The position numbers were made by a program, and so were the translations under genes. From assembly GCF_000522985.1 (NCBI RefSeq), contig NZ_CP007129.1, positions 310,001 through 374,000 of the forward strand: DNA of 64,000 nucleotides, written 5' to 3'. The DNA comes from Gemmatirosa kalamazoonensis (GTDB lineage: Bacteria; Gemmatimonadota; Gemmatimonadetes; Gemmatimonadales; Gemmatimonadaceae). This document shows positions 385-58,553 of the stretch, piece after piece; positions within the stretch are counted from its first letter, which is position 1; each line of letters opens with the position of its first letter. The notes under the pieces are model-generated. The model saw only the letters and a list, made by a program, of their open reading frames with translations. It was not told the origin of the DNA and did no database searches.

Positions 385-397
385 ACGGCTCTCGTCA

Positions 398-1978
398 TTG
401 AACCGCGGAGGACGCAGAGGACGCAGAGGGGAACTCATTCGGTCTCCGGCTTTCCTCTGCGTCCTCTGCGGTTCGATGCTTTTTGCCTGCAGCCGCTCCG
501 ATCGCCCGCCGGCGCCGAGCTTCGCGGCGATCTTCCCGCCCGCCACCGGCGCGCTGATGAACGAGTCCTCGCCCGCGCTCGCGGACCTCGACGGCGACGG
601 CGTGCCCGACATCGTGTTCGGCTCGGGCGTGGACCGCACGCGGCCGGCGGGGCGGCGGCTCGTGTTCACCGGACAGCCGGCGGTCTCCGGCTACGTCGTC
701 GCCGTCTCCGGGCGCACGAACCGGATCCTGTGGCAGGTGCCGAACCCGCGCGACGCGTTCACCACGCCCCGCTTCGCGTACCTCGACCACGACCGCGTTC
801 CCGACGTCGTCATGGGCGGACGCGAGGGAGTGCTCACCGCGTACGCGGGCACCGACGGCCACGTGCTGTGGCGCGTGCTGGGCGAGGACGTCGTCGCGAC
901 GCCGTTCCCGTACTACTTCCTGACGCCGGCCATCGTGCCCGACGTGAACGGCGACGGCGTGCCGGACGTCGTCGACACGTACGGCGGCAACGACACGCGC
1001 GCGCCGAGGGATGCGCGCGACGCGGGCTACGTGATGGTCGTCTCGGGCGCCGACGGCCGCGTGCTGAGGGCGCAGCGGGTGCCCGACGGCGCCGAGACGT
1101 ACGCCTCGCCGCTCGCGTATCGGCGGCGCGACGGGAGCACGTGGGTGATCTTCGGCACCGGCGGCGAGACGAAGCCCGGCGCCGAGTGGCGCGCGCCGCT
1201 CGCGTCGCTCGTCGACAGCACGCTCGCCACGCGCGCGGAGCGCCTCGTGCTGGAAGGGACGAAGGGGGTCATCGCGCCGCCGACGCTCGTCGATCTCACC
1301 GGCGACGGCGAGCAGGACGTGCTCGTGAACACGTTCGACGGACGGCTCGTCGCCGTGGACGGCGCGACGGCGAAGCCGCTGTGGTCGCACGCCGACTCGT
1401 CGGAGGAGTCGTACCACCAGCCGGCGGTCGTGCGCCTAACGAGGGACGGCGGGCGCCTCGGCCTGTTCGTCTCGCGCGGCATCGGCGCCTTCCCGCGCTA
1501 CGTCGGCACGGTGCACCGGCTGTACGACGCCGCGACCGGGCGCGTGCTGTACGAGTATCGCGATCCGAACTACCCGGCCGGCGCGCCGCTCGCCGTCGAC
1601 CTCACCGGCGACGGCGTGGACGAGCCGGTGTTCTTCACGCAGCGCTTTCCGGCCGCCCAGGGCTCGCGCATCCACGTGCTCCATCTGCCGACGCATCGTC
1701 TCGCGTCGCACGACGTGCCGGACAACCTGTGGAGCACACCGGTGGTCGCCGACCCGCGCCGTACGGGCACGCTGGAGCTGATCGGCGTGTCGTGGCGCAT
1801 GGGGCCGAACGGCATCGCGAGCCTGCCCGACGTGCAGTGGCAGCTGCTGCGTCTCGATCTCTCGGCGAAGACGCCGTCCGCGATCACGTGGGGCGGGTAC
1901 ATGGGGACGACGGCGGACGGGCGGTATCACGCTGGAGATCTCACGCGGAGCCGCGGAGCACGCGGAGAACACCAGTGA
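398..1978 (+). CDS. Exported FG-GAP / integrin-alpha-like repeat lipoprotein
   Basis: A 526-aa protein (from TTG 398) with at least five FG-GAP calcium-binding loops of the DxDGDGxxD type (for example DLDGDGVPD, DVNGDGVPD, DLTGDGEQD, DLTGDGVDE), as in beta-propeller surface proteins. The N-terminus ends in a lipobox-like LFAC followed by SRSD, so an outer-membrane lipoprotein is likely. The start is uncertain: ATG 476 would leave almost no signal peptide, so a start upstream within repeat R1 is preferred. The C-terminal LTRSRGARGEHQ tail is encoded by the left arm of repeat R2. The stop overlaps a GTG in the frame of the next gene (GTGA), which suggests co-translation with the GH31 glycosidase. 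The substrate or partner is unknown. Confidence 0.75.
   Translation: MNRGGRRGRRGELIRSPAFLCVLCGSMLFACSRSDRPPAPSFAAIFPPATGALMNESSPALADLDGDGVPDIVFGSGVDRTRPAGRRLVFTGQPAVSGYVVAVSGRTNRILWQVPNPRDAFTTPRFAYLDHDRVPDVVMGGREGVLTAYAGTDGHVLWRVLGEDVVATPFPYYFLTPAIVPDVNGDGVPDVVDTYGGNDTRAPRDARDAGYVMVVSGADGRVLRAQRVPDGAETYASPLAYRRRDGSTWVIFGTGGETKPGAEWRAPLASLVDSTLATRAERLVLEGTKGVIAPPTLVDLTGDGEQDVLVNTFDGRLVAVDGATAKPLWSHADSSEESYHQPAVVRLTRDGGRLGLFVSRGIGAFPRYVGTVHRLYDAATGRVLYEYRDPNYPAGAPLAVDLTGDGVDEPVFFTQRFPAAQGSRIHVLHLPTHRLASHDVPDNLWSTPVVADPRRTGTLELIGVSWRMGPNGIASLPDVQWQLLRLDLSAKTPSAITWGGYMGTTADGRYHAGDLTRSRGARGEHQ
401..473. repeat. Inverted repeat R1, CGCAGAGGA-word arms
   Basis: The left arm at 401-429 contains AACCGCGGAGGACGCAGAGG plus one extra ACGCAGAGG unit. 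The right arm at 454-473 is its reverse complement with one mismatch. The loop is about 24 nt. The element lies inside the annotated N-terminus of the following lipoprotein gene, and its right arm encodes FLCVLCG, the hydrophobic part of the signal peptide. Confidence 0.85.
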
Positions 1979-4302: not shown

Positions 4303-4349
4303 GTTTCGAGTGGCGTCTCACGACCCCTCGGCAGTGAAGGGGCCTCGTG

Positions 4350-4418
4350 TTTGGACGCGGATCACGCGGATATCGCGGATTCGCGCGATCCGCGATATCC
4401 GCGCGATCCGCGTCCAAA
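4350..4418. repeat. Inverted repeat R3, GATCCGCG-word arms
   Basis: Left arm 4350-4380 and right arm 4388-4418 pair over 31 nt with one mismatch, around a 7-nt loop. The arms consist of GCGGAT / ATCCGC words. Downstream, the box GTACATGGAGTCTTGA (4435-4450) resembles the terminal box of other elements. It lies in the 162-bp spacer between the GH31 and GH127 genes, which otherwise holds only the GH127 ribosome binding site (CGGAG, about 8 nt before ATG 4465). Confidence 0.9.
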
Positions 4419-4464
4419 CTCACGGGGGCATGACGTACATGGAGTCTTGAACCGGAGCGAAAAA

Positions 4465-6949: not shown

Positions 6950-7094
6950 ACTCCACGTACGTGTTCTCATAGGACTGAAGAAGGACTGAAGAGTGACTGA
7001 AGAAGGATCAACCAAGACAAGAGTTGTTGTCGTTTGTCCTTCTTCAGTCGGTCTTCAGTCCTGGCAGTTGTCTTCCAGAAACACGTACGTGGAG
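6950..7094. repeat. Nested inverted repeat R4 with ACTCCACGTACGTG ends and GGACTGAAGA-word arms
   Basis: Outer ends ACTCCACGTACGTGTT (6950-6965) and AACACGTACGTGGAGT (7079-7094) are exact inverted copies. Inside, tandem GGACTGAAGA words (6972-7007) face TCTTCAGTCC words (7037-7062), around a CAACCAAGACAAGAGTTGTTG core. It fills the 186-bp gap between the GH127 and S9 genes, and I see no other feature there. Confidence 0.85.
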
Positions 7095-20429: not shown

Positions 20430-22247
20430 CTACGGCCACTCGACCACGACCAGCGACACGGCCTGCCGAGGCAGCGCGAACTCGAGGCGCGCGCTGCCCC
20501 CGTCGACGTGCACGCTCGACGGCCCGTCGAGCTTCGCGAGCTGCCCCGCGGCCAGGAGCCTGTCGTACTGCTCGCGGCTCGGCGCGATCGGCGATCCCAT
20601 CCGCTTCCACTCGGCGAACGCGTTCGAGTGCGCGTCGTCCACCCGATAGTGCGTGACCCGCGCCTCGCGGGTGCCTGACGGCAGGCCGGCGAGCGACAGC
20701 GACACGCGCGCGCCGGGCCCCGGCACGTCGTCGTCGTGGTAGTGCCACACGAGCACGGCGAGCTTCCCCGGCGCGAGGCTCGCCAGCGCCGACACGTCGG
20801 GCGCGCCGCGCACGCCGTCGCGCACCATCGCGTCGAGCCCCGGATCCCGGTCGCTCTCCGCCGACACGTGCTGGCCGCCGAGCCCCGCGAGCATGCGAAA
20901 CACGTTCAGCACCGGCAGGTCGATGCCGTTCGTGGCGAGCACGCGGAAGCCGGCGAAGTACGGCTGGTCCTCGAACTCGAACGCCCACGTCAGCGCGCCG
21001 AGCAGGTTCACGCCGTGCCGCTCGGCCAGCAGCACCGTGCGCGCGTAGGCCGCGGCGGTGTAGCTCGCGTACATCGTCCCGTTGCGGTAGCCGAGCTGCG
21101 GGCCCTGGCACGCGGCGCAGCCGTCGGGGTCCGACTCGCCGATCACGATCGGCGTCGCGCGCAGCTCGGGGAACGACGCGATGCGCGCGAATCCCTGATC
21201 GATCGTGCGGAGCTGCGCGGCGATGCCGGTGCGCACGTGCCCGTCCACGAAGCTCGGCGCGCCCTTGGCGTGGAACGACACGAAGTCGTGCGGCGTGCCC
21301 GTGGCGCCGGTGGCGAAGTTGCGGCCGCGCAGCACGTGCTCGAGGAAGCCCTGCATGAACGCGCCGCCGCTCCCCGCGACGTCCGGCCCGCCGACGCGCG
21401 CCGTGGGCAGCGCGCGGCGCACACCGGCGATCGCGTGGTCGTGCAGCCGCAGGAACTCCTCGGGCGTCCCCTTCCAATAGCCGATGTTCGGCTCGTTCCA
21501 CACCTCCCAGTACCACCGCTCGACCTCCGCGCGGCCGAAGCGCTCGACGCAGTGCTTCACCCACCGGTACACGAGCTCCTCCCACTTCGCGTAGTCCTTC
21601 GGCGGGTAGGCCCAGCCCGTGTACACGTCGTCGTAGGGGAGCCCCGGGCGCCACGCGTGCTGGTACGGCTCGGGGTGCGTGGACAGCGCCTGCGGCATGA
21701 AGCCGATCTCGACGTACGGGCGCACGCCGCGCGCGAGGTAGGTCGCGAAGATGCGGTCGACGACGGAGAAATCGTACACGGGACGGCCGCGCGCGTCCTC
21801 GGTGTAGACGTTCGTGCTCCCCCACTTCAGCGCCGGCGTGCCATCGCCGGTGACGAGCAGATGGTGCGTGCGGAAGTAGACCTGCGGACCGCCGCTGTCG
21901 CCCAACGAGCCCAGCTCCGCGACGAGCTTGCGGCCGTCCTTCATCGTCGCGTAGTTCGGCTCGTCGGCGCCGAAGAACCGCCACGCGGGTGGCAGCGCGC
22001 CTAACGGTTTCGCGGCGTCGACGCGGATCGCGACCGGGAACGCGGGCTCCTGTGCGCCGCCCGCAAGCGCCGTAGCCGCCGACAGGATCAGCGACAGGAG
22101 CGACAGGAGTCCGACGCTCTTCTTCTCGACAGGATGAACAGGACGGACGGGATGAGAACCAACAACACGTGTAGTGCCTTTGTTGTTGGTCTTTATCCTG
22201 TCCGTCCTGTTCATCCTGTCGAACGCAACGGCAAAGGTGTCGTTCAT
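20430..22247 (-). CDS. GH39-like glycoside hydrolase (beta-xylosidase-type), exported
   Basis: A 605-aa protein from ATG 22247, which overlaps the previous stop (ATGA); ATG 22214 is an internal alternative. The first 50 residues are encoded by repeat R7, including the signal-like LLSLLSLILSAATALAGGA. The catalytic domain resembles GH39/clan-A (beta/alpha)8 enzymes: FFGADEPNYATMKDGRKL, YEDARGR-type Tyr region, the acid/base WEVWNEPNIGYW and the likely nucleophile glutamate in VIGESDPDG. A C-terminal beta domain (about residues 470-605) follows. GH39 members cleave beta-xylosides or alpha-L-iduronides; for this plant-polymer locus a xyloside is more plausible, but the substrate is not proven. 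Confidence 0.8.
   Translation of the reverse strand: MNDTFAVAFDRMNRTDRIKTNNKGTTRVVGSHPVRPVHPVEKKSVGLLSLLSLILSAATALAGGAQEPAFPVAIRVDAAKPLGALPPAWRFFGADEPNYATMKDGRKLVAELGSLGDSGGPQVYFRTHHLLVTGDGTPALKWGSTNVYTEDARGRPVYDFSVVDRIFATYLARGVRPYVEIGFMPQALSTHPEPYQHAWRPGLPYDDVYTGWAYPPKDYAKWEELVYRWVKHCVERFGRAEVERWYWEVWNEPNIGYWKGTPEEFLRLHDHAIAGVRRALPTARVGGPDVAGSGGAFMQGFLEHVLRGRNFATGATGTPHDFVSFHAKGAPSFVDGHVRTGIAAQLRTIDQGFARIASFPELRATPIVIGESDPDGCAACQGPQLGYRNGTMYASYTAAAYARTVLLAERHGVNLLGALTWAFEFEDQPYFAGFRVLATNGIDLPVLNVFRMLAGLGGQHVSAESDRDPGLDAMVRDGVRGAPDVSALASLAPGKLAVLVWHYHDDDVPGPGARVSLSLAGLPSGTREARVTHYRVDDAHSNAFAEWKRMGSPIAPSREQYDRLLAAGQLAKLDGPSSVHVDGGSARLEFALPRQAVSLVVVEWP
22086..22222. repeat. Inverted repeat R7, GACAGGA-word arms
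   Basis: A 42-nt stem (22126-22167 against 22181-22222) with about four mismatches, built from GACAGGA and GGACGGAC words and closing on CCAACAACA ... TGTTGTTGG. Extra GACAGGA units continue at 22086-22110 on one side only. It encodes the N-terminus of the GH39 protein. Confidence 0.88.
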
Positions 22248-24154: not shown

Positions 24155-24232
24155 CACGCGGAGACGCGGAGAACGCGGAGACAACCAACATGAGGTTGTT
24201 GCCGTTCTCCGCGTCCTCCGCGTCTCCGCGTG
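24155..24232. repeat. Inverted repeat R8, CGCGGAG-word arms
   Basis: Left arm 24155-24189 (CACGCGGAGACGCGGAG...) and right arm 24195-24232 form a long stem ending in a CAACCAAC / GTTGTTG core. It fills the gap between the enolase and FAH genes. A 36-codon frame (24138-24248, minus) reads through it, with overlapping start/stop signals on both sides. Confidence 0.88.
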
Positions 24233-28137: not shown

Positions 28138-31100
28138 ATGCGTCGTCCCCTCCGCTCCGCGCTCGCCCTCCTGCCGGTCCTGCCCCTGCTCGCGACCGCG
28201 CTCGCCGCTCAACCGCGCGGTGGCGGCGCGCCGCGCGCCCCCGCCCAGGATCCGTTCCGCTTCCAGCTCCTCGGTCCCGCGGGCGGCGGACGCTTCGCCG
28301 CCGTCGCCGGCGTCCCCGGCGATGCGCGCGTCCTCTACCTCGGCGCCGCGTCCGGCGGCGTGTGGAAGTCGAGCGACTCCGGCGCGACCTGGCTCCCCGT
28401 CTTCGATCGCCAGCCCGTCCAGGCGATCGGCGCGCTCGCCGTCGCGCCCACCGCGCCGAACATGATCTGGGCCGGCACCGGCGAGGCGTGGGCCATCCGC
28501 GACGCCGACGTCGTCGGCGACGGCGTCTATCTCTCCACCGACTCCGGCGCGACGTGGACGAACATGGGGCTGCGCGAGACCGGCCGCATCGGCCGCATCG
28601 TCGTCCACCCCACGAACCCCAGCACCGTCTACGTCTGCGCGCTCGGCCGCGGCACCGGGCCGCAGCAGGAGCGCGGCGTCTACCGCACCACCGACGCCGG
28701 CAAGACGTGGCAGCGCGTGCTGTTCGTCGACGAGAACACCGGCTGCTCGGGGCTCAACATCGACCGCACGAACCCGAACGTGCTCTACGCCGGCATGTGG
28801 CAGATGGTGATGCACACCTTCGCCATGTACAGCGGCGGCCCGTCGAGCGCGATCTACAAGAGCACCGACGGCGGCGGCACGTGGACGAAGCTCGCGCACG
28901 AGGGCCTGCCGAAGAGCCCCGTCGGCAAGATCGACGTCATGGTCGCCCCCACCGACTCGCGCCGCGTCTACGCGCTCATCCAGACGAAGGACCAGGGCTC
29001 GCTCTGGCGCTCCGACGACGCCGGCGGGAGCTGGCGCGTCGTGAACTGGCAGCGCGGGCTCATCGGCCGCGCGGGCTACTACATCAAGCTCGACGTCAGC
29101 CCCGTCAACGCCGACGAGATCATCGTCGCCAACAGCTCCGTGTGGCACTCCACCGACGGCGGGAAGAGCTTCGCCGAGGTGCCGTGGGGCGGCGACACGC
29201 ACGACATCTGGTGGGACGCGAAGAACCCCGACCGCTTCGCGATCACGAACGACGCGAGCACGCGCTTCACGAGCGACCACGGACGCACGTGGCTCACCGT
29301 GACGCTCCCGATCGCGCAGATGTACCACGTCGCCGTCGACGACCAGGTGCCGTACTGGGTCTACGGCAACCGGCAGGACAACGGGACCATGCGCGGGCCC
29401 TCCACGGGACCCGAGCGCGTCGAGGGGACGCGCGGCATCCCGGCGCCGGAGGTGTTCGGGACTCGGGCCTCGGGACTCGGGACTCGTCCGCCCCGAGTCC
29501 CGAGTCCCGAGGCCCGAGTCCCGGGCGTCGACAGCACCACGCCGCGTCAGCCCGGCGACACGACCCGCCCCGCGCAGAGCGATCCCGGCGCGCCGGGCGG
29601 CTTCGGCGGCGGCGGCTTCGGCGGCGGCGCGGGCGGCGGCTTCGCGCCCACGACGTGGGACCACGGCATCGGCGGCTGCGAGTCGGGCTTCACGCTCCCC
29701 GACGTCACGAACACCGACATCGTGTGGGCGAGCTGCTACGGCAACACGGTCACCCGCTGGGACGCGAAGACGAAGACCGCGCGCTCCGTCGCGCCGTGGC
29801 GCCACACGCTCGACTCGCCGCCGCAGGAGCTGAAGTACCGCTGCCACTGGACGCCGCCGCTCGCCATCGACCCGTTCGATCACGAGACGGTGTACTACGG
29901 CTGCCAGGTCGTCTTCAAGACGAACGACCGCGGCCAGACGTGGAAGGTGCTCAGCCCCGATCTCTCGACGCGCGATCCGTCGCGCATCGTCTCGTCGGGC
30001 GGCATCGTCGAGGACAACCTCGGCCAGTTCTACGGCGAGGTGGTGTTCGCGATCGCGCCGTCGGAGGTCCAGCGCGGCCTGATCTGGGCCGGCACGAACG
30101 ACGGCAAGATCTGGAACACGCGCGACGGCGGCGCGACGTGGAACGACCTCACGAAGAACGTCGCCGGGCTTCCGGCATGGGGCACGGTGCGCAAGATCGA
30201 GCCGTCGCACTTCGACCCCGCCACCGCGTACGTCGCGGTCGACGTGCACATGATGGACGACCGTCGGCCGTACATCTACAAGACGAGCGACTACGGCAAG
30301 ACGTGGAGGAATGTCACCGGCGACCTGCCGGCCGATCACCCGCTCGCCTACGTCATGGCCGTCGCCGAGAACCCGAACCGGAAGGGGATGCTGTTCGCGG
30401 GTACGGGGCACGGCTTCTACTACTCGCTCGACGACGGCGCGCACTGGACGCAGTTCCAGGACGGGCTCCCCGCCGCGCCGGTGTCGTGGATCGTGACGCC
30501 GAACAAGCGGTGGCACGACGTGGTGGTGTCGACGTACGGGCGCGGCGTGTACGTGCTGCGCGACATCGCGCCGCTGGAGCAGAAGGACCGCGTCGTGGCG
30601 AGCGCGCCGGTGACGCTCTATCCGCCGCGCGCCGGCTACCGCGAGGCGCGCAGCGGCCGCGCCGACATCTCGTTCTCGCTCGCGCAGGCGACGCCGCGTC
30701 CGGTGAAGCTCGAGATCCTCGACTCCACGGGCGCCGTGATCCGCACGCTGCAGGTGCCGACGCGCGCCGGCATGAACCGCGCGACGTGGGACCTCCGCTA
30801 CGAGCCGCCGAAGCGCCCGGAGCTGCGCACGGTCGCGCTGGAGAACCCGCACATCTGGGAGGAGCCGCGCTTCCGCAACCAGCAGACGCGCCCGATCACG
30901 CACTGGGGGATCCAGCAGCCGCAGGGGCAGGGGCCGCTCGCACTCCCCGGCCGCTACTCGGTGCGCCTCACCGTCGACTCCGCGTCGCGTGCGCAGACGC
31001 AGCCGCTCGTGATCATCAAGGACTCGCAGATCGCGAGCTCCGTCCCCGACCTCGCCGCGTCGACGCGTGCGCAGCTCCGCATCCGCGACGACATCGACAC

Positions 31101-31518
31101 CACGGTCGCGATGATCAACAAGCTGGAGACGATGCGGAAGCAGATCGAGGACCAGCGCAAGGCGAACGCGGGCAACGCCGACGTCCTCGCGTCGCTCGAC
31201 GCGCTGGAGAAGAAGATGCTCGACGTGGAGCTGCAGCTCGTGTCGAAGTCGGACCTCAACAGCGACGACAAGTACTACGTGGAGCGCTACCGCGTGTACA
31301 TGAACCTGATCTGGCTCTCTGGCGAGGTCGGGAGCGGTGCCGGCGACGTCGCCGGCGGCGCCGAGTACCGCCCCACCGACGCGTCGCTCGCCACGCTCGC
31401 CGACATCGAGAAGGATCTCTCGGCCGCGAAGAGCGCCTACGCGCGGCTGCTGCGCGAGGACGTGCCGGCGTTCAACAAGGCGATGAGCGGGAAGATCGCC
31501 ACGATCGCGATCATGTGA
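28138..31518 (+). CDS. Large exported BNR/VPS10 (sortilin-like) beta-propeller protein
   Basis: A 1126-aa protein with a signal peptide (MRRPLRSALALLPVLPLLATALAAQ). Repeated Asp-box-like motifs SxDxGxTW (SSDSGATW, STDSGATW, TTDAGKTW, STDGGGTW, TSDHGRTW, TNDRGQTW, TRDGGATW, TSDYGKTW) mark a multi-bladed propeller as in sortilin/xyloglucanase GH74-like proteins. Residues about 441-462 are encoded by a perfect palindrome (R10) and lead into a Gly/Phe-rich linker. A C-terminal region (about residues 1000-1126) is helical with a probable coiled coil. Function is not known; cell-surface binding or glycan hydrolysis is possible. Confidence 0.8.
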   Translation: MRRPLRSALALLPVLPLLATALAAQPRGGGAPRAPAQDPFRFQLLGPAGGGRFAAVAGVPGDARVLYLGAASGGVWKSSDSGATWLPVFDRQPVQAIGALAVAPTAPNMIWAGTGEAWAIRDADVVGDGVYLSTDSGATWTNMGLRETGRIGRIVVHPTNPSTVYVCALGRGTGPQQERGVYRTTDAGKTWQRVLFVDENTGCSGLNIDRTNPNVLYAGMWQMVMHTFAMYSGGPSSAIYKSTDGGGTWTKLAHEGLPKSPVGKIDVMVAPTDSRRVYALIQTKDQGSLWRSDDAGGSWRVVNWQRGLIGRAGYYIKLDVSPVNADEIIVANSSVWHSTDGGKSFAEVPWGGDTHDIWWDAKNPDRFAITNDASTRFTSDHGRTWLTVTLPIAQMYHVAVDDQVPYWVYGNRQDNGTMRGPSTGPERVEGTRGIPAPEVFGTRASGLGTRPPRVPSPEARVPGVDSTTPRQPGDTTRPAQSDPGAPGGFGGGGFGGGAGGGFAPTTWDHGIGGCESGFTLPDVTNTDIVWASCYGNTVTRWDAKTKTARSVAPWRHTLDSPPQELKYRCHWTPPLAIDPFDHETVYYGCQVVFKTNDRGQTWKVLSPDLSTRDPSRIVSSGGIVEDNLGQFYGEVVFAIAPSEVQRGLIWAGTNDGKIWNTRDGGATWNDLTKNVAGLPAWGTVRKIEPSHFDPATAYVAVDVHMMDDRRPYIYKTSDYGKTWRNVTGDLPADHPLAYVMAVAENPNRKGMLFAGTGHGFYYSLDDGAHWTQFQDGLPAAPVSWIVTPNKRWHDVVVSTYGRGVYVLRDIAPLEQKDRVVASAPVTLYPPRAGYREARSGRADISFSLAQATPRPVKLEILDSTGAVIRTLQVPTRAGMNRATWDLRYEPPKRPELRTVALENPHIWEEPRFRNQQTRPITHWGIQQPQGQGPLALPGRYSVRLTVDSASRAQTQPLVIIKDSQIASSVPDLAASTRAQLRIRDDIDTTVAMINKLETMRKQIEDQRKANAGNADVLASLDALEKKMLDVELQLVSKSDLNSDDKYYVERYRVYMNLIWLSGEVGSGAGDVAGGAEYRPTDASLATLADIEKDLSAAKSAYARLLREDVPAFNKAMSGKIATIAIM
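29458..29522. repeat. Perfect inverted repeat R10 inside a coding sequence
   Basis: Left arm 29458-29486 and right arm 29494-29522 pair over 29 of 29 bases around a 7-nt loop. The arms are built of GGGACTCGG words. The element keeps the reading frame of the BNR protein and encodes a Gly/Arg/Pro-rich stretch (FGTRASGLGTRPPRVPSPEA) next to a Gly-rich linker. Confidence 0.95.
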
Positions 31519-31539: not shown

Positions 31540-31689
31540 ACTCCACGTACGTGTTCTCGTTGGACTGAAGAGGGACTGAAGGAGGACTGAAGCAGGACTG
31601 AAGCAGGACAACAACAAAGACGTTGTGTTTGGTCCTTCTTCAGTCCCTCTTCAGTCCTCCTTCAGTCCTCCACGAACACGTACGTGGAG
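31540..31689. repeat. Nested inverted repeat R11 with ACTCCACGTACGTG ends
   Basis: Ends ACTCCACGTACGTGTT (31540) and AACACGTACGTGGAG (31675-31689) enclose tandem GGACTGAAG(C/G)A words facing CTTCAGTCC words. The centre AACAACAAAGACGTTGTG is identical to that of R20 in the opposite orientation. It fills the 210-bp gap between the BNR and M24 genes. Confidence 0.88.
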
Positions 31690-35263: not shown

Positions 35264-36285
35264 CAGACGCTCCACGCTCCACGCTCCACGCTCCACGCTC
35301 GACATCTCCCGCGACCATGCCGAGCGTGGAGCGTGGAGCGTCGAGCCTCGAGCGGATCCATGTGGTCGACAGCCACACGGAGGGCGAGCCCACCCGCGTC
35401 GTGATCGACGGCTGGCCGCTCCCCGACGGCGCGACGATGGCCGAGCGCCGCGACGTGCTGCGGTCGCGGTTCGATCATCTGCGGCGCGGCGTGGTGCGCG
35501 AGCCGCGGGGGAGCGACGCGGTCGTCGGTGCGCTGCTCACGCCGCCGGTGAACGAGGGCTCGGCCGCCGGGATCGTGTTCTTCAACAACGGCACGTACCT
35601 CGGCATGTGCGGCCACGGCCTGATCGGCGTCGTCCGCACGCTCGAGCACCTCGGCCGCCTGACGGTCGGCACGCACCAGTTCGACACGCCGGTCGGCACC
35701 GTGCGCGCCGAGCTCGCGGCCGACGGCACGGTGACCATCGAGAACGTGCCCGCGCGGCTGCACGCGCGCGACGTGTCGGTCGAGGTGCCCGGCTACGGCA
35801 CGGTCACCGGCGACGTCGCGTACGGCGGCAACTGGTTCTTCATCACGCACGCGCATCCGGTCGCGGTGGACGTCGCGAACGTGCGCGAGTTGACGCGCTT
35901 CACGCAGGCGGTGCAGGACGCGCTCGACGCCGCGGGACTCTCGCGCGTCGACGGCGGCGGCGCGATCGACCACATCGAGATCTCCGCCGAGTCGGAGCAG
36001 GCGGACTGCCGCAACTTCGTGCTCTGCTCCGGCGGCGAGTACGACCGCTCGCCGTGCGGCACCGGCACCTCGGCCAAGCTCGCGACGCTCCACGCGCGCG
36101 GCGAGCTCGCCGTCGGCCAGCCCTGGCGCCAGGAAGGGATCGCGGGCGGCGTGTTCACGGGATGGCTCGCGCCTAACGACGCGGGCGAGATCGTGCCGTT
36201 CGTGCGTGGCACCGCGTACGTGACCGCCGAGTCGACGCTGATCCTCGACCCGAGAGATCCGTTCCGGTTCGGGATCGGCGGGTGA
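35260..36285 (+). CDS. 4-hydroxyproline 2-epimerase (proline racemase family, Cys-Cys type)
   Basis: A 341-aa protein from ATG 35260 (ATGA overlap with the dehydrogenase gene); ATG 35317 is an alternative. The first 20-25 residues come from repeat R12 and lie before the conserved start HVVDSHTEGEPTRVV. Both catalytic cysteines are present: Cys117 in MCGHG and Cys266 in SPCGTGTSAKLA. The enzyme would convert trans-4-hydroxy-L-proline into cis-4-hydroxy-D-proline, the substrate of the dehydrogenase encoded next. Cytosolic. Compare the Ser-Cys paralogue at 40424. Confidence 0.88.
   Translation: MTDAPRSTLHAPRSTSPATMPSVERGASSLERIHVVDSHTEGEPTRVVIDGWPLPDGATMAERRDVLRSRFDHLRRGVVREPRGSDAVVGALLTPPVNEGSAAGIVFFNNGTYLGMCGHGLIGVVRTLEHLGRLTVGTHQFDTPVGTVRAELAADGTVTIENVPARLHARDVSVEVPGYGTVTGDVAYGGNWFFITHAHPVAVDVANVRELTRFTQAVQDALDAAGLSRVDGGGAIDHIEISAESEQADCRNFVLCSGGEYDRSPCGTGTSAKLATLHARGELAVGQPWRQEGIAGGVFTGWLAPNDAGEIVPFVRGTAYVTAESTLILDPRDPFRFGIGG
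35267..35348. repeat. Inverted repeat R12, CTCCACG-word arms
   Basis: Four tandem GCTCCAC(G) units (35269-35301) face GAGCGTGGAGCGTGGAGCG (35321-35340) and flanking bases. It lies just inside the coupled start codon of the epimerase gene and encodes APRSTLHAPRSTS. Confidence 0.85.
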
Positions 36286-39169: not shown

Positions 39170-39299
39170 TCACGTGGAGACGCGGAGCGTGCGGAGAACT
39201 GCCTTGGCAGTGTGAATGAACCACAGAGGACGCAGAGGGCCGCAGAGGAAACCAACAGCGATTGGTTCTCCTCTGCGGCCCTCTGCGTCCTCTGCGGTT
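39170..39299. repeat. Compound repeat R16: CGCGGAG half arm plus CGCAGAGGA full inverted repeat
   Basis: A single CGCGGAG-word arm (39170-39202) abuts a full inverted repeat: AACCACAGAGGACGCAGAGG on (39219-39256) facing 39260-39299, with core AACCAAC / GATTGGTT. Two different arm families lie side by side between convergent genes (39163 and 39326). Confidence 0.85.
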
Positions 39300-39325
39300 C
39301 AGACTCGAAGAGACCCTTCCTCAGC

Positions 39326-41508: not shown

Positions 41509-41589
41509 CTCACGCGGAGCCGCGGAGAACGCGGAGCACTGCAACACAACGTGTTGGTTTTCTCCGCGTTCCCCGCGGCTCCGCGTGAG
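41509..41589. repeat. Inverted repeat R17, CGCGGAG-word arms
   Basis: Arms 41509-41547 and 41551-41589, CTCACGCGGAGCCGCGGAG on one side and its complement on the other, close on a CAACAC / GTGTTGG core. It lies between the racemase-family gene and ATG 41617. The frame from GTG 41473 stays open through it into the next gene. Confidence 0.9.
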
Positions 41590-53072: not shown

Positions 53073-53219
53073 GACTCCACGTACGTGTTTATTGAGGACT
53101 GAAGGAGGACTGAAGAGGGACTGAAGCAGGACCAAACACAACGTCTTTGTTGTTGGTCCTTCTTCAGTCCTTCTTCAGTCCTTCTTCAGTCCTACCAGAC
53201 CACGTACGTGGAGTCGTGA
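53073..53219. repeat. Nested inverted repeat R20 with ACTCCACGTACGTG ends
   Basis: Ends GACTCCACGTACGTG (53073 on) and CACGTACGTGGAGTC (53201-53215) enclose GGACTGAAG words (53097-53130) facing CTTCAGTCC words (53160-53191). The centre is the reverse complement of the R11 centre. It lies between the convergent M24 and DUF5916 genes. Confidence 0.88.
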
Positions 53220-58402: not shown

Positions 58403-58553
58403 GAACCGCCGAGGACGCAGAGGGCCGCCGAGGACTGCCTCTTCGAACAGCAAAAAGATCTGGGGATGAGAGGAGTCTTAGGATCCTGAGATCCTTTCAT
58501 CCCCAAGTATTGCTGTTGATGTTCTCTGCGGCCCTCTGCGCCCTCTGCGGCTC
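58403..58553. repeat. Double-nested inverted repeat R19
   Basis: Outer arms GAACCGCCGAGGACGCAGAGG on (58403-58434) and CCCTCTGCGGCTCG (to 58553) enclose a second, AT-richer palindrome with CAGCAA / TTGCTG ends, GGGGATGA / TCATCCCC and a central GGATCC (58480-58485). It fills the 231-bp gap between the permease and YceI genes. Confidence 0.85.

What the first reader, a model, noticed from the sequence alone, without database searches (positions are those of the whole stretch)
29458..29522. Perfect 29-bp palindrome inserted inside the BNR/sortilin-like gene
The two arms are identical over 29 bases with a 7-nt loop. The frame is kept and the element encodes an Arg/Pro/Gly-rich stretch beside a Gly-rich linker. 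Perfect arms suggest recent insertion or gene-conversion maintenance. It is the only element wholly within a gene.
Basis: seen in the sequence. Interest (0 to 1): 0.68.

Follow-up and report, generated by a model that had tools for sequence, protein, structure and literature searches.

The report
Heptamer palindromes inserted in-frame in genes
A soil bacterium (Gemmatirosa kalamazoonensis) carries a family of dispersed hairpin-shaped repeats whose 7-letter unit has no stop codon in any reading frame, and copies sit in frame inside core genes such as those for DnaA, isoleucyl-tRNA synthetase, MutS and topoisomerase I; the palindrome in this window is one such copy, in a floppy linker of a BNR/sortilin-like protein.

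Summary
The palindrome is real: 30-nt arms (29457-29486 and 29494-29523), 100% complementary, 7-nt loop. The arms are four tandem GGGACTC heptamers, with one variant (GGGCCTC) mirrored in the other arm. It is not unique. It belongs to a dispersed family ("F1") in Gemmatirosa kalamazoonensis; I examined about 54 loci. Loop variants recur at unlinked sites, so the family spreads by copying. The insert is absent from orthologues, where the linker is short and variable, and AlphaFold leaves the whole linker disordered. Other F1 copies lie in frame in DnaA (twice), IleRS (plus a second heptamer family, F7), MutS, TopA, GGT, a ClpB-like ATPase, an NRPS and others. Orthologues or solved homologues show gaps where checked. 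Most of the genome's other palindrome families, several with stop codons in the unit, are almost exclusively intergenic. A 7-nt unit is coprime with 3, so every insertion phase encodes the same stop-free hydrophilic peptide (GTRDSGL...SPESRVP). This works like Rickettsia palindromic elements, but sequence and architecture differ. No Y1/RAYT transposase is detected in the genome and no target duplication was found, so how it moves is unknown. Most likely: selfish palindromes tolerated in disordered loops. New variant of a known kind.

The parts
29457..29523 (.). F1 palindromic element, 67 nt: 30-nt perfect arms, 7-nt loop
29457..29486 (+). left arm: C + GGGACTC GGGCCTC GGGACTC GGGACTC + G (4 heptamers; variant heptamer 29465-29471)
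29487..29493 (+). loop TCCGCCC, same loop as the copy at C2:5276999; TCCCCCC-type loops recur at other sites
29494..29523 (+). right arm: C + GAGTCCC GAGTCCC GAGGCCC GAGTCCC + G (mirrored variant 29509-29515)
28138..31518 (+). host gene, 1126-aa BNR/Sortilin-Vps10-like protein; insert at aa 441-462
29416..29685 (+). disordered inter-strand linker (aa 427-516, pLDDT < 50) that holds the insert; hypervariable in orthologues, carries an unrelated palindrome in G014
35276..35346 (.). intergenic copy of the second stop-free heptamer family F7 (CGCTCCA), which elsewhere is inserted in frame (e.g. IleRS)

Best explanation
It is one copy of a dispersed, probably selfish palindromic repeat (F1: (GGGACTC)4 - loop - (GAGTCCC)4) that has spread by copying through the Gemmatirosa genome and inserts in genes as well as between them. 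SHOWN: multi-copy family with loop subclasses recurring at unlinked sites; in-frame copies in core genes; absence from orthologues; location in a disordered linker. INFERRED: insertions land more or less at random and selection removes those that shift the frame, introduce a stop or hit a fold. F1 survives in genes because a 7-nt unit is coprime with 3, so every phase of insertion reads the same seven codons on each arm (GTRDSGL / ESRVPSP), which are stop-free and hydrophilic, and translation simply reads through. Arms then change by whole-unit slippage, mostly one arm at a time (tolerated between genes, purged in genes), and are partly re-matched by hairpin template switching. The copying machinery is not identified.
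For: Dispersed copies with shared loops. Combined unbiased census of 1.71 Mb: F1+F7 in or at the edge of genes 8/23, other named palindrome families 4/119, Fisher p = 5e-5. 17 copies have coding signal on both sides. Inserts fall inside Pfam domains: MutS_III, Topoisom_bac, G_glu_transpept, tRNA-synt_1, HATPase_c. Gaps in solved homologues at the insert: MutS, TopA, IleRS. Relatives mostly lack the inserts: DnaA 22/24 and 23/24, IleRS 17/24; BNR linker. Codon cycle identical in all three frames, no stops. In-gene copies are kept at 4+4 units, 11/17 vs 4/23 between genes, p = 0.003; arm lengths uncorrelated. Mirrored variants 7 vs 1.1 expected. Linker pLDDT about 25. Independent insertion of G014's own multi-copy palindrome family in the same linker.
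Against: No empty site at nucleotide resolution: no same-genus genome was available. No mobiliser identified: Pfam Y1_Tnp finds nothing in the genome, no target duplication. No proteomic proof that the peptides are made. The BLAST-found sample of 53 overstates the in-gene share because the query was an in-gene copy; the unbiased share is lower. A 9-nt family (F3) also has one in-frame copy, so heptamers are not the only tolerated unit.
Confidence: 0.75

Rival explanations
1. Local de novo origin: a short GGGACTC-like seed expanded by slippage and was folded back into a palindrome by template switching, separately at each site; no mobility.
For: Arm lengths vary in whole units and independently; mirrored variants fit template switching; other genera show one-armed or degenerate heptamer runs of other sequence in the same loops of DnaA and IleRS.
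Against: Specific loop sequences of 7-15 nt recur at many unlinked sites (e.g. GGAACTRCTCCCCCA at 5-6 loci, GGGCTGCGGACTCC at about 5); the same unit occurs at dozens of sites in this genome but in only 4 of 148 family genomes.
Confidence: 0.13
2. A REP/REPIN-type element mobilised by a RAYT (Y1 tyrosine transposase) in trans.
For: Dispersed GC-rich hairpins, no target duplication, many copies; some relatives hold Y1_Tnp genes, including G043, which also has F1-like units.
Against: Pfam Y1_Tnp finds nothing in the own genome or in G014, both rich in palindromes; Y1_Tnp genes of the relatives that were fetched are not flanked by F1; arms are tandem heptamers of variable number.
Confidence: 0.1
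3. A selected functional element: mRNA hairpin or G-quadruplex regulator, or a useful protein linker peptide.
For: Very stable hairpin; (GGGACTC)4 fits a G4 motif on each strand; the four-unit preference matches the G4-forming GGGAATC repeats of Xanthomonas (PMC4692102).
Against: Not conserved in any of the three proteins compared with relatives; host genes share no function; insert positions differ; the peptide follows automatically from the DNA repeat.
Confidence: 0.08
4. An ancient protein feature (native Arg/Pro/Gly-rich linker) that happens to be palindromic.
For: It lies beside a native Gly-rich linker.
Against: Orthologues lack it; the same DNA is found between genes and in unrelated genes.
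Confidence: 0.01

Closest known systems
Rickettsia palindromic elements (RPE) and Wolbachia protein-coding palindromes (Ogata 2000, 2002, 2005; reviewed in PMC2229807 and PMC10969869)
   Same: Multi-copy palindromes found both between genes and in frame inside unrelated, conserved protein genes; transposition mechanism unknown; gene products presumably still active.
   Different: RPEs are about 105-150 bp and, as far as I know, lack tandem heptamer arms; they occur in obligate intracellular bacteria. F1 is 65-95 bp, GC-rich, built of 7-nt units readable in every frame, in a free-living soil bacterium.
Xanthomonas (GGGAATC)n and Nostoc GGGGA(T/C)T heptamer repeats (PMC4692102)
   Same: Heptamer G-rich unit one base from GGGACTC, 2-26 units with four preferred, often as convergent inverted pairs, often close to stop codons, dispersed.
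   Different: Described as G4-forming and 89-93% intergenic; no in-frame insertion into core proteins reported in the passages read; here nearly every complete copy is a palindrome and a substantial share is in genes.
REP / REPIN / BIME elements with RAYTs (PMC3116915, PMC2817692)
   Same: Dispersed short palindromes in many copies.
   Different: No Pfam Y1_Tnp match in the genome; REPs are extragenic; no REP head motif was looked for.
Correia/NEMIS and ERIC/RU MITEs with intragenic copies (PMC2229807)
   Same: The stop-free version of a palindromic element is found fused in genes while the stop-containing version stays intergenic.
   Different: They have target duplications and TA termini; F1 shows no clear target duplication.

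Membership tests
Rickettsia-type protein-coding palindromic elements (as a phenomenon) | palindromic repeat present in many copies | tested here: met
Rickettsia-type protein-coding palindromic elements (as a phenomenon) | in-frame insertion in unrelated conserved protein genes, absent in orthologues | tested here: met
RPE sequence families of Rickettsia | sequence relatedness to an RPE consensus | not tested
   no RPE consensus was fetched; element size and architecture differ
RPE | translated product remains functional (guanylate kinase precedent, PMC2229807) | not testable with these tools
   needs expression and assay
REP/REPIN (RAYT-mobilised) | Y1 tyrosine transposase (PF01797) in the genome | tested here: not met
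   (control genomes positive)
REP/REPIN (RAYT-mobilised) | cognate repeats flanking a RAYT gene | tested here: not met
   in relatives that have Y1_Tnp
MITE | target-site duplication | tested here: inconclusive
   direct-repeat excess p = 0.06, at most one copy with 6 nt or more
MITE | terminal repeats shared with a resident autonomous transposon | not tested
   no survey of IS elements was made
Xanthomonas-type heptamer G4 repeats | tandem G3N4 heptamers, four units preferred, often in inverted pairs | tested here: met
   PMC4692102
Xanthomonas-type heptamer G4 repeats | consensus GGGAATC | tested here: not met
   consensus here GGGACTC, one base different, though it fits the looser GGGANTN
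Rfam families | match above gathering score | tested here: not met
   none in the host gene

The most novel reading that the evidence does not exclude
A self-propagating hairpin element that needs no dedicated transposase (copied by host replication or template switching) and whose 7-nt unit makes it readable in every frame, so that it has repeatedly colonised core genes (DnaA twice, IleRS twice by two families, MutS, TopA) of a free-living bacterium, with different heptamer families doing the same in the same loops of other Gemmatimonadota.
Probability: 0.3. Interest if true: 0.8.

Novelty: new variant of a known kind. Interest (0 to 1): 0.62.

Why it matters
Protein-coding palindromes were described mainly from Rickettsia and Wolbachia, where relaxed selection in reduced genomes was a ready explanation (own knowledge). 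Finding the same phenomenon, with an unrelated element, in a large-genome free-living soil bacterium shows that it is not a by-product of the intracellular life style. The heptamer suggests a simple general rule that can be tested across genomes: repeats whose unit is coprime with 3 and stop-free can invade genes, others stay between genes. It also supplies natural insertions into DnaA, IleRS, MutS and topoisomerase I for mapping tolerant loops.

Tried and rejected
Y1_Tnp/RAYT mobilisation: no Pfam match in the genome, and Y1_Tnp genes in relatives are not flanked by F1. Target-site duplication: no clear signal; an apparent CCGTC direct repeat at the IleRS copy is out of frame with the insertion and was dropped. 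Fixed element ends: total length modulo 3 differs among in-gene copies, so ends must vary by 1-2 nt. A first mirror test on stems chosen for best pairing was biased and replaced by the unit-based test. G043 copies are mostly degenerate, and no orthologous filled/empty pair was found. Searching the paper library for the element sequences gave no relevant paper. Rfam gave none. The first in-gene comparison (7/13 vs 2/71) was replaced by the pooled unbiased census 8/23 vs 4/119.

Full report
OBSERVATION. The palindrome exists as described, one base longer on each arm: 29457-29486 and 29494-29523, 30 nt, 100% complementary, 7-nt loop TCCGCCC. The arms are not arbitrary sequence but four tandem heptamers, GGGACTC GGGCCTC GGGACTC GGGACTC, with the odd heptamer mirrored as GAGGCCC in the other arm. 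It lies in frame in a 1126-aa gene, 28138-31518 (+), of the Sortilin-Vps10/BNR kind, as residues 441-462. The window is part of a 1,106,233-bp replicon of a 7,479,215-bp genome whose replicon sizes match those published for Gemmatirosa kalamazoonensis KBS708.

SURROUNDINGS. The genome is full of hairpins: 93 with stems of at least 18 bp in 914 kb of this replicon, against 1 in a 300-kb Markov-4 control. Most fall into about eleven families whose arms are short tandem units: F1 GGGACTC (7 nt), F2 GGACTGAAGGA (11), F3 ACAGAGGAC (9), F4 ACGCGGAG, F5 GACAGGATG, F6 GCTGCGTG (8), F7 CGCTCCA (7), F8 CGCGGAT and others. The element of the finding is one F1 copy. I examined 53 F1 loci plus one more found later. 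The whole-genome pattern search counts 528 hits of three-unit runs and finds the unit run in only 4 of 148 genomes of the taxonomic family.

STRUCTURE OF THE FAMILY. Of 47 clean copies, 18 have exactly four units in each arm; longer arms are usually expanded on one side only (r = -0.06 between arms). Loop sequences fall into classes that recur at unlinked positions, for example TCCCCCC/TCCGCCC, TCCGGCACC, GGAACTRCTCCCCCA and GGGCTGCGGACTCC. That is what copying predicts and what independent expansion does not. Mirrored unit variants occur 7 times against 1.1 expected (maximum 5 in 5000 shuffles), yet 33 variants are unmirrored: arm-to-arm correction is plausible but not dominant. Flanks show no clear target duplication.

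COPIES INSIDE GENES. F1 copies with coding signal on both sides number 17 among the clean copies. Host proteins by Pfam and alignment: DnaA (two inserts), isoleucyl-tRNA synthetase, MutS, topoisomerase I, gamma-glutamyltranspeptidase, a histidine kinase, a TPP enzyme, a ClpB-like AAA ATPase next to T6SS TssG, an NRPS adenylation domain, a polysaccharide-export protein, an FAD/OYE fusion, a glucuronyl esterase-GDSL protein (two inserts) and the BNR protein of the window. A second heptamer family, F7, does the same: 7 of 20 copies in called genes, including a second insert in the same IleRS. In each case F1 encodes variations of GTRDSGLGTRDS...SPESRVPSPESR.

ABSENCE FROM RELATIVES. DnaA insert 1 is missing in 22 of 24 relatives and insert 2 in 23 of 24; the IleRS F1 insert in 17 of 24 by a strict count, the others having unrelated residues there or not covering the site. 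Alignments to solved MutS, TopA and IleRS show a gap at or next to the insert. For the window protein, 23 orthologues at 56-68% identity have a variable, often much shorter linker without this segment. AlphaFold places residues 427-516 in a disordered stretch between two strands, pLDDT about 25 at the insert. The same linker in genome G014 carries an unrelated palindrome that belongs to a multi-copy family of that genome and has no match in this one. Tolerant loops of DnaA and IleRS in other genera carry other heptamer runs or palindromes. The loop, not the sequence, is what recurs.

WHY THIS FAMILY AND NOT THE OTHERS. In 1.71 Mb taken without regard to F1 (914 kb of the replicon, 800 kb of chromosome), F1+F7 are in or at the edge of genes in 8 of 23 cases, all other named families in 4 of 119 (p = 5e-5). 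A 7-nt unit is coprime with 3, so each arm cycles through the same seven codons whatever the phase: GTRDSGL and ESRVPSP for F1, RSTLHAP and WSVERGA for F7, without stops and hydrophilic. F2 and F5 units contain stops in every frame of one strand, and F6 encodes a hydrophobic Trp/Cys peptide. In-gene F1 copies are held at 4+4 units (11/17) while copies between genes are longer (4/23 are 4+4; p = 0.003), as expected if one-unit slippage shifts the frame and is purged. The rule is not absolute: one F3 copy (9-nt unit) is also in frame.

MECHANISM. Shown: dispersal, in-frame presence, absence from relatives, disordered location. Inferred: insertion at random with purifying selection; read-through translation; slippage and partial template-switch repair of the arms. 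Unknown: the copying machinery. Pfam Y1_Tnp finds nothing in the genome while control genomes ring, and Y1_Tnp genes in relatives are not flanked by F1.

COMPARISON. The behaviour is that of Rickettsia palindromic elements (about 105-150 bp, in frame in conserved genes, mechanism unknown). The unit and its four-fold, inverted arrangement resemble the GGGAATC repeats of Xanthomonas, which were described as 89-93% intergenic. I file it as a new variant of protein-coding palindromic elements, not as an RPE or a REP.

LIMITS. No same-genus genome was available, so no exact empty site. The gene calls are from a simple codon-usage caller written here. The 53-copy sample was found by similarity to an in-gene copy and overstates the in-gene share. 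No proteomic data.

Noticed in passing
whole genome; 47 copies in the window (e.g. 1434, 2631, 9772; reverse 4583, 9408): The octamer GCCTAACG is extremely over-represented: 4469 copies in the genome against 133 for the reversed control, 645 in 914 kb of the replicon (13-33 expected), equal on both strands, two thirds in genes with strong frame bias (rare TTA Leu codon). Four other genera of the family have thousands, most have almost none. Looks like a DNA-uptake-type or HIP1-type signal.
   Followed up: partly
window 396-478, 1939-2016, 4318-4450, 6982-7062, 22126-22222, 24155-24232, 31541-31689, 39217-39301, 41509-41589, 53073-53215, 58403-58553: Many other palindromes with tandem-unit arms (units of 8-11 nt) belonging to at least five further dispersed families, nearly all between genes. 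Ten hairpins in the replicon share a CCAAC...GTTGG apex although their arms differ.
   Followed up: partly
L011 (G014), BNR linker; G014:C26:338075-338158: The orthologous gene of another genus carries an unrelated in-frame palindrome (GGATCCCTCGC...GCTCGGGATGAC...GTCATCCCGAGCG) that has more than 40 partial matches in that genome.
   Followed up: partly
L233 (own IleRS), L249, L242, L236, L254, L209: The same loops of IleRS and DnaA hold different heptamer runs or palindromes in different Gemmatimonadota, suggesting recurrent invasion of tolerant loops.
   Followed up: partly
G000:C2:139849-140067: An intergenic F1 copy with 25 GGGACTC units in one arm and four in the other: a possible hypervariable locus.
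   Followed up: no
G000:C2:1209567 and 1210400; C2:5276110 and 5276999; C3:246611 and 247680; C2:1031798 and 1033302: F1 copies come in close pairs (0.8-1.5 kb) in the same or neighbouring genes, which hints at local copying.
   Followed up: no
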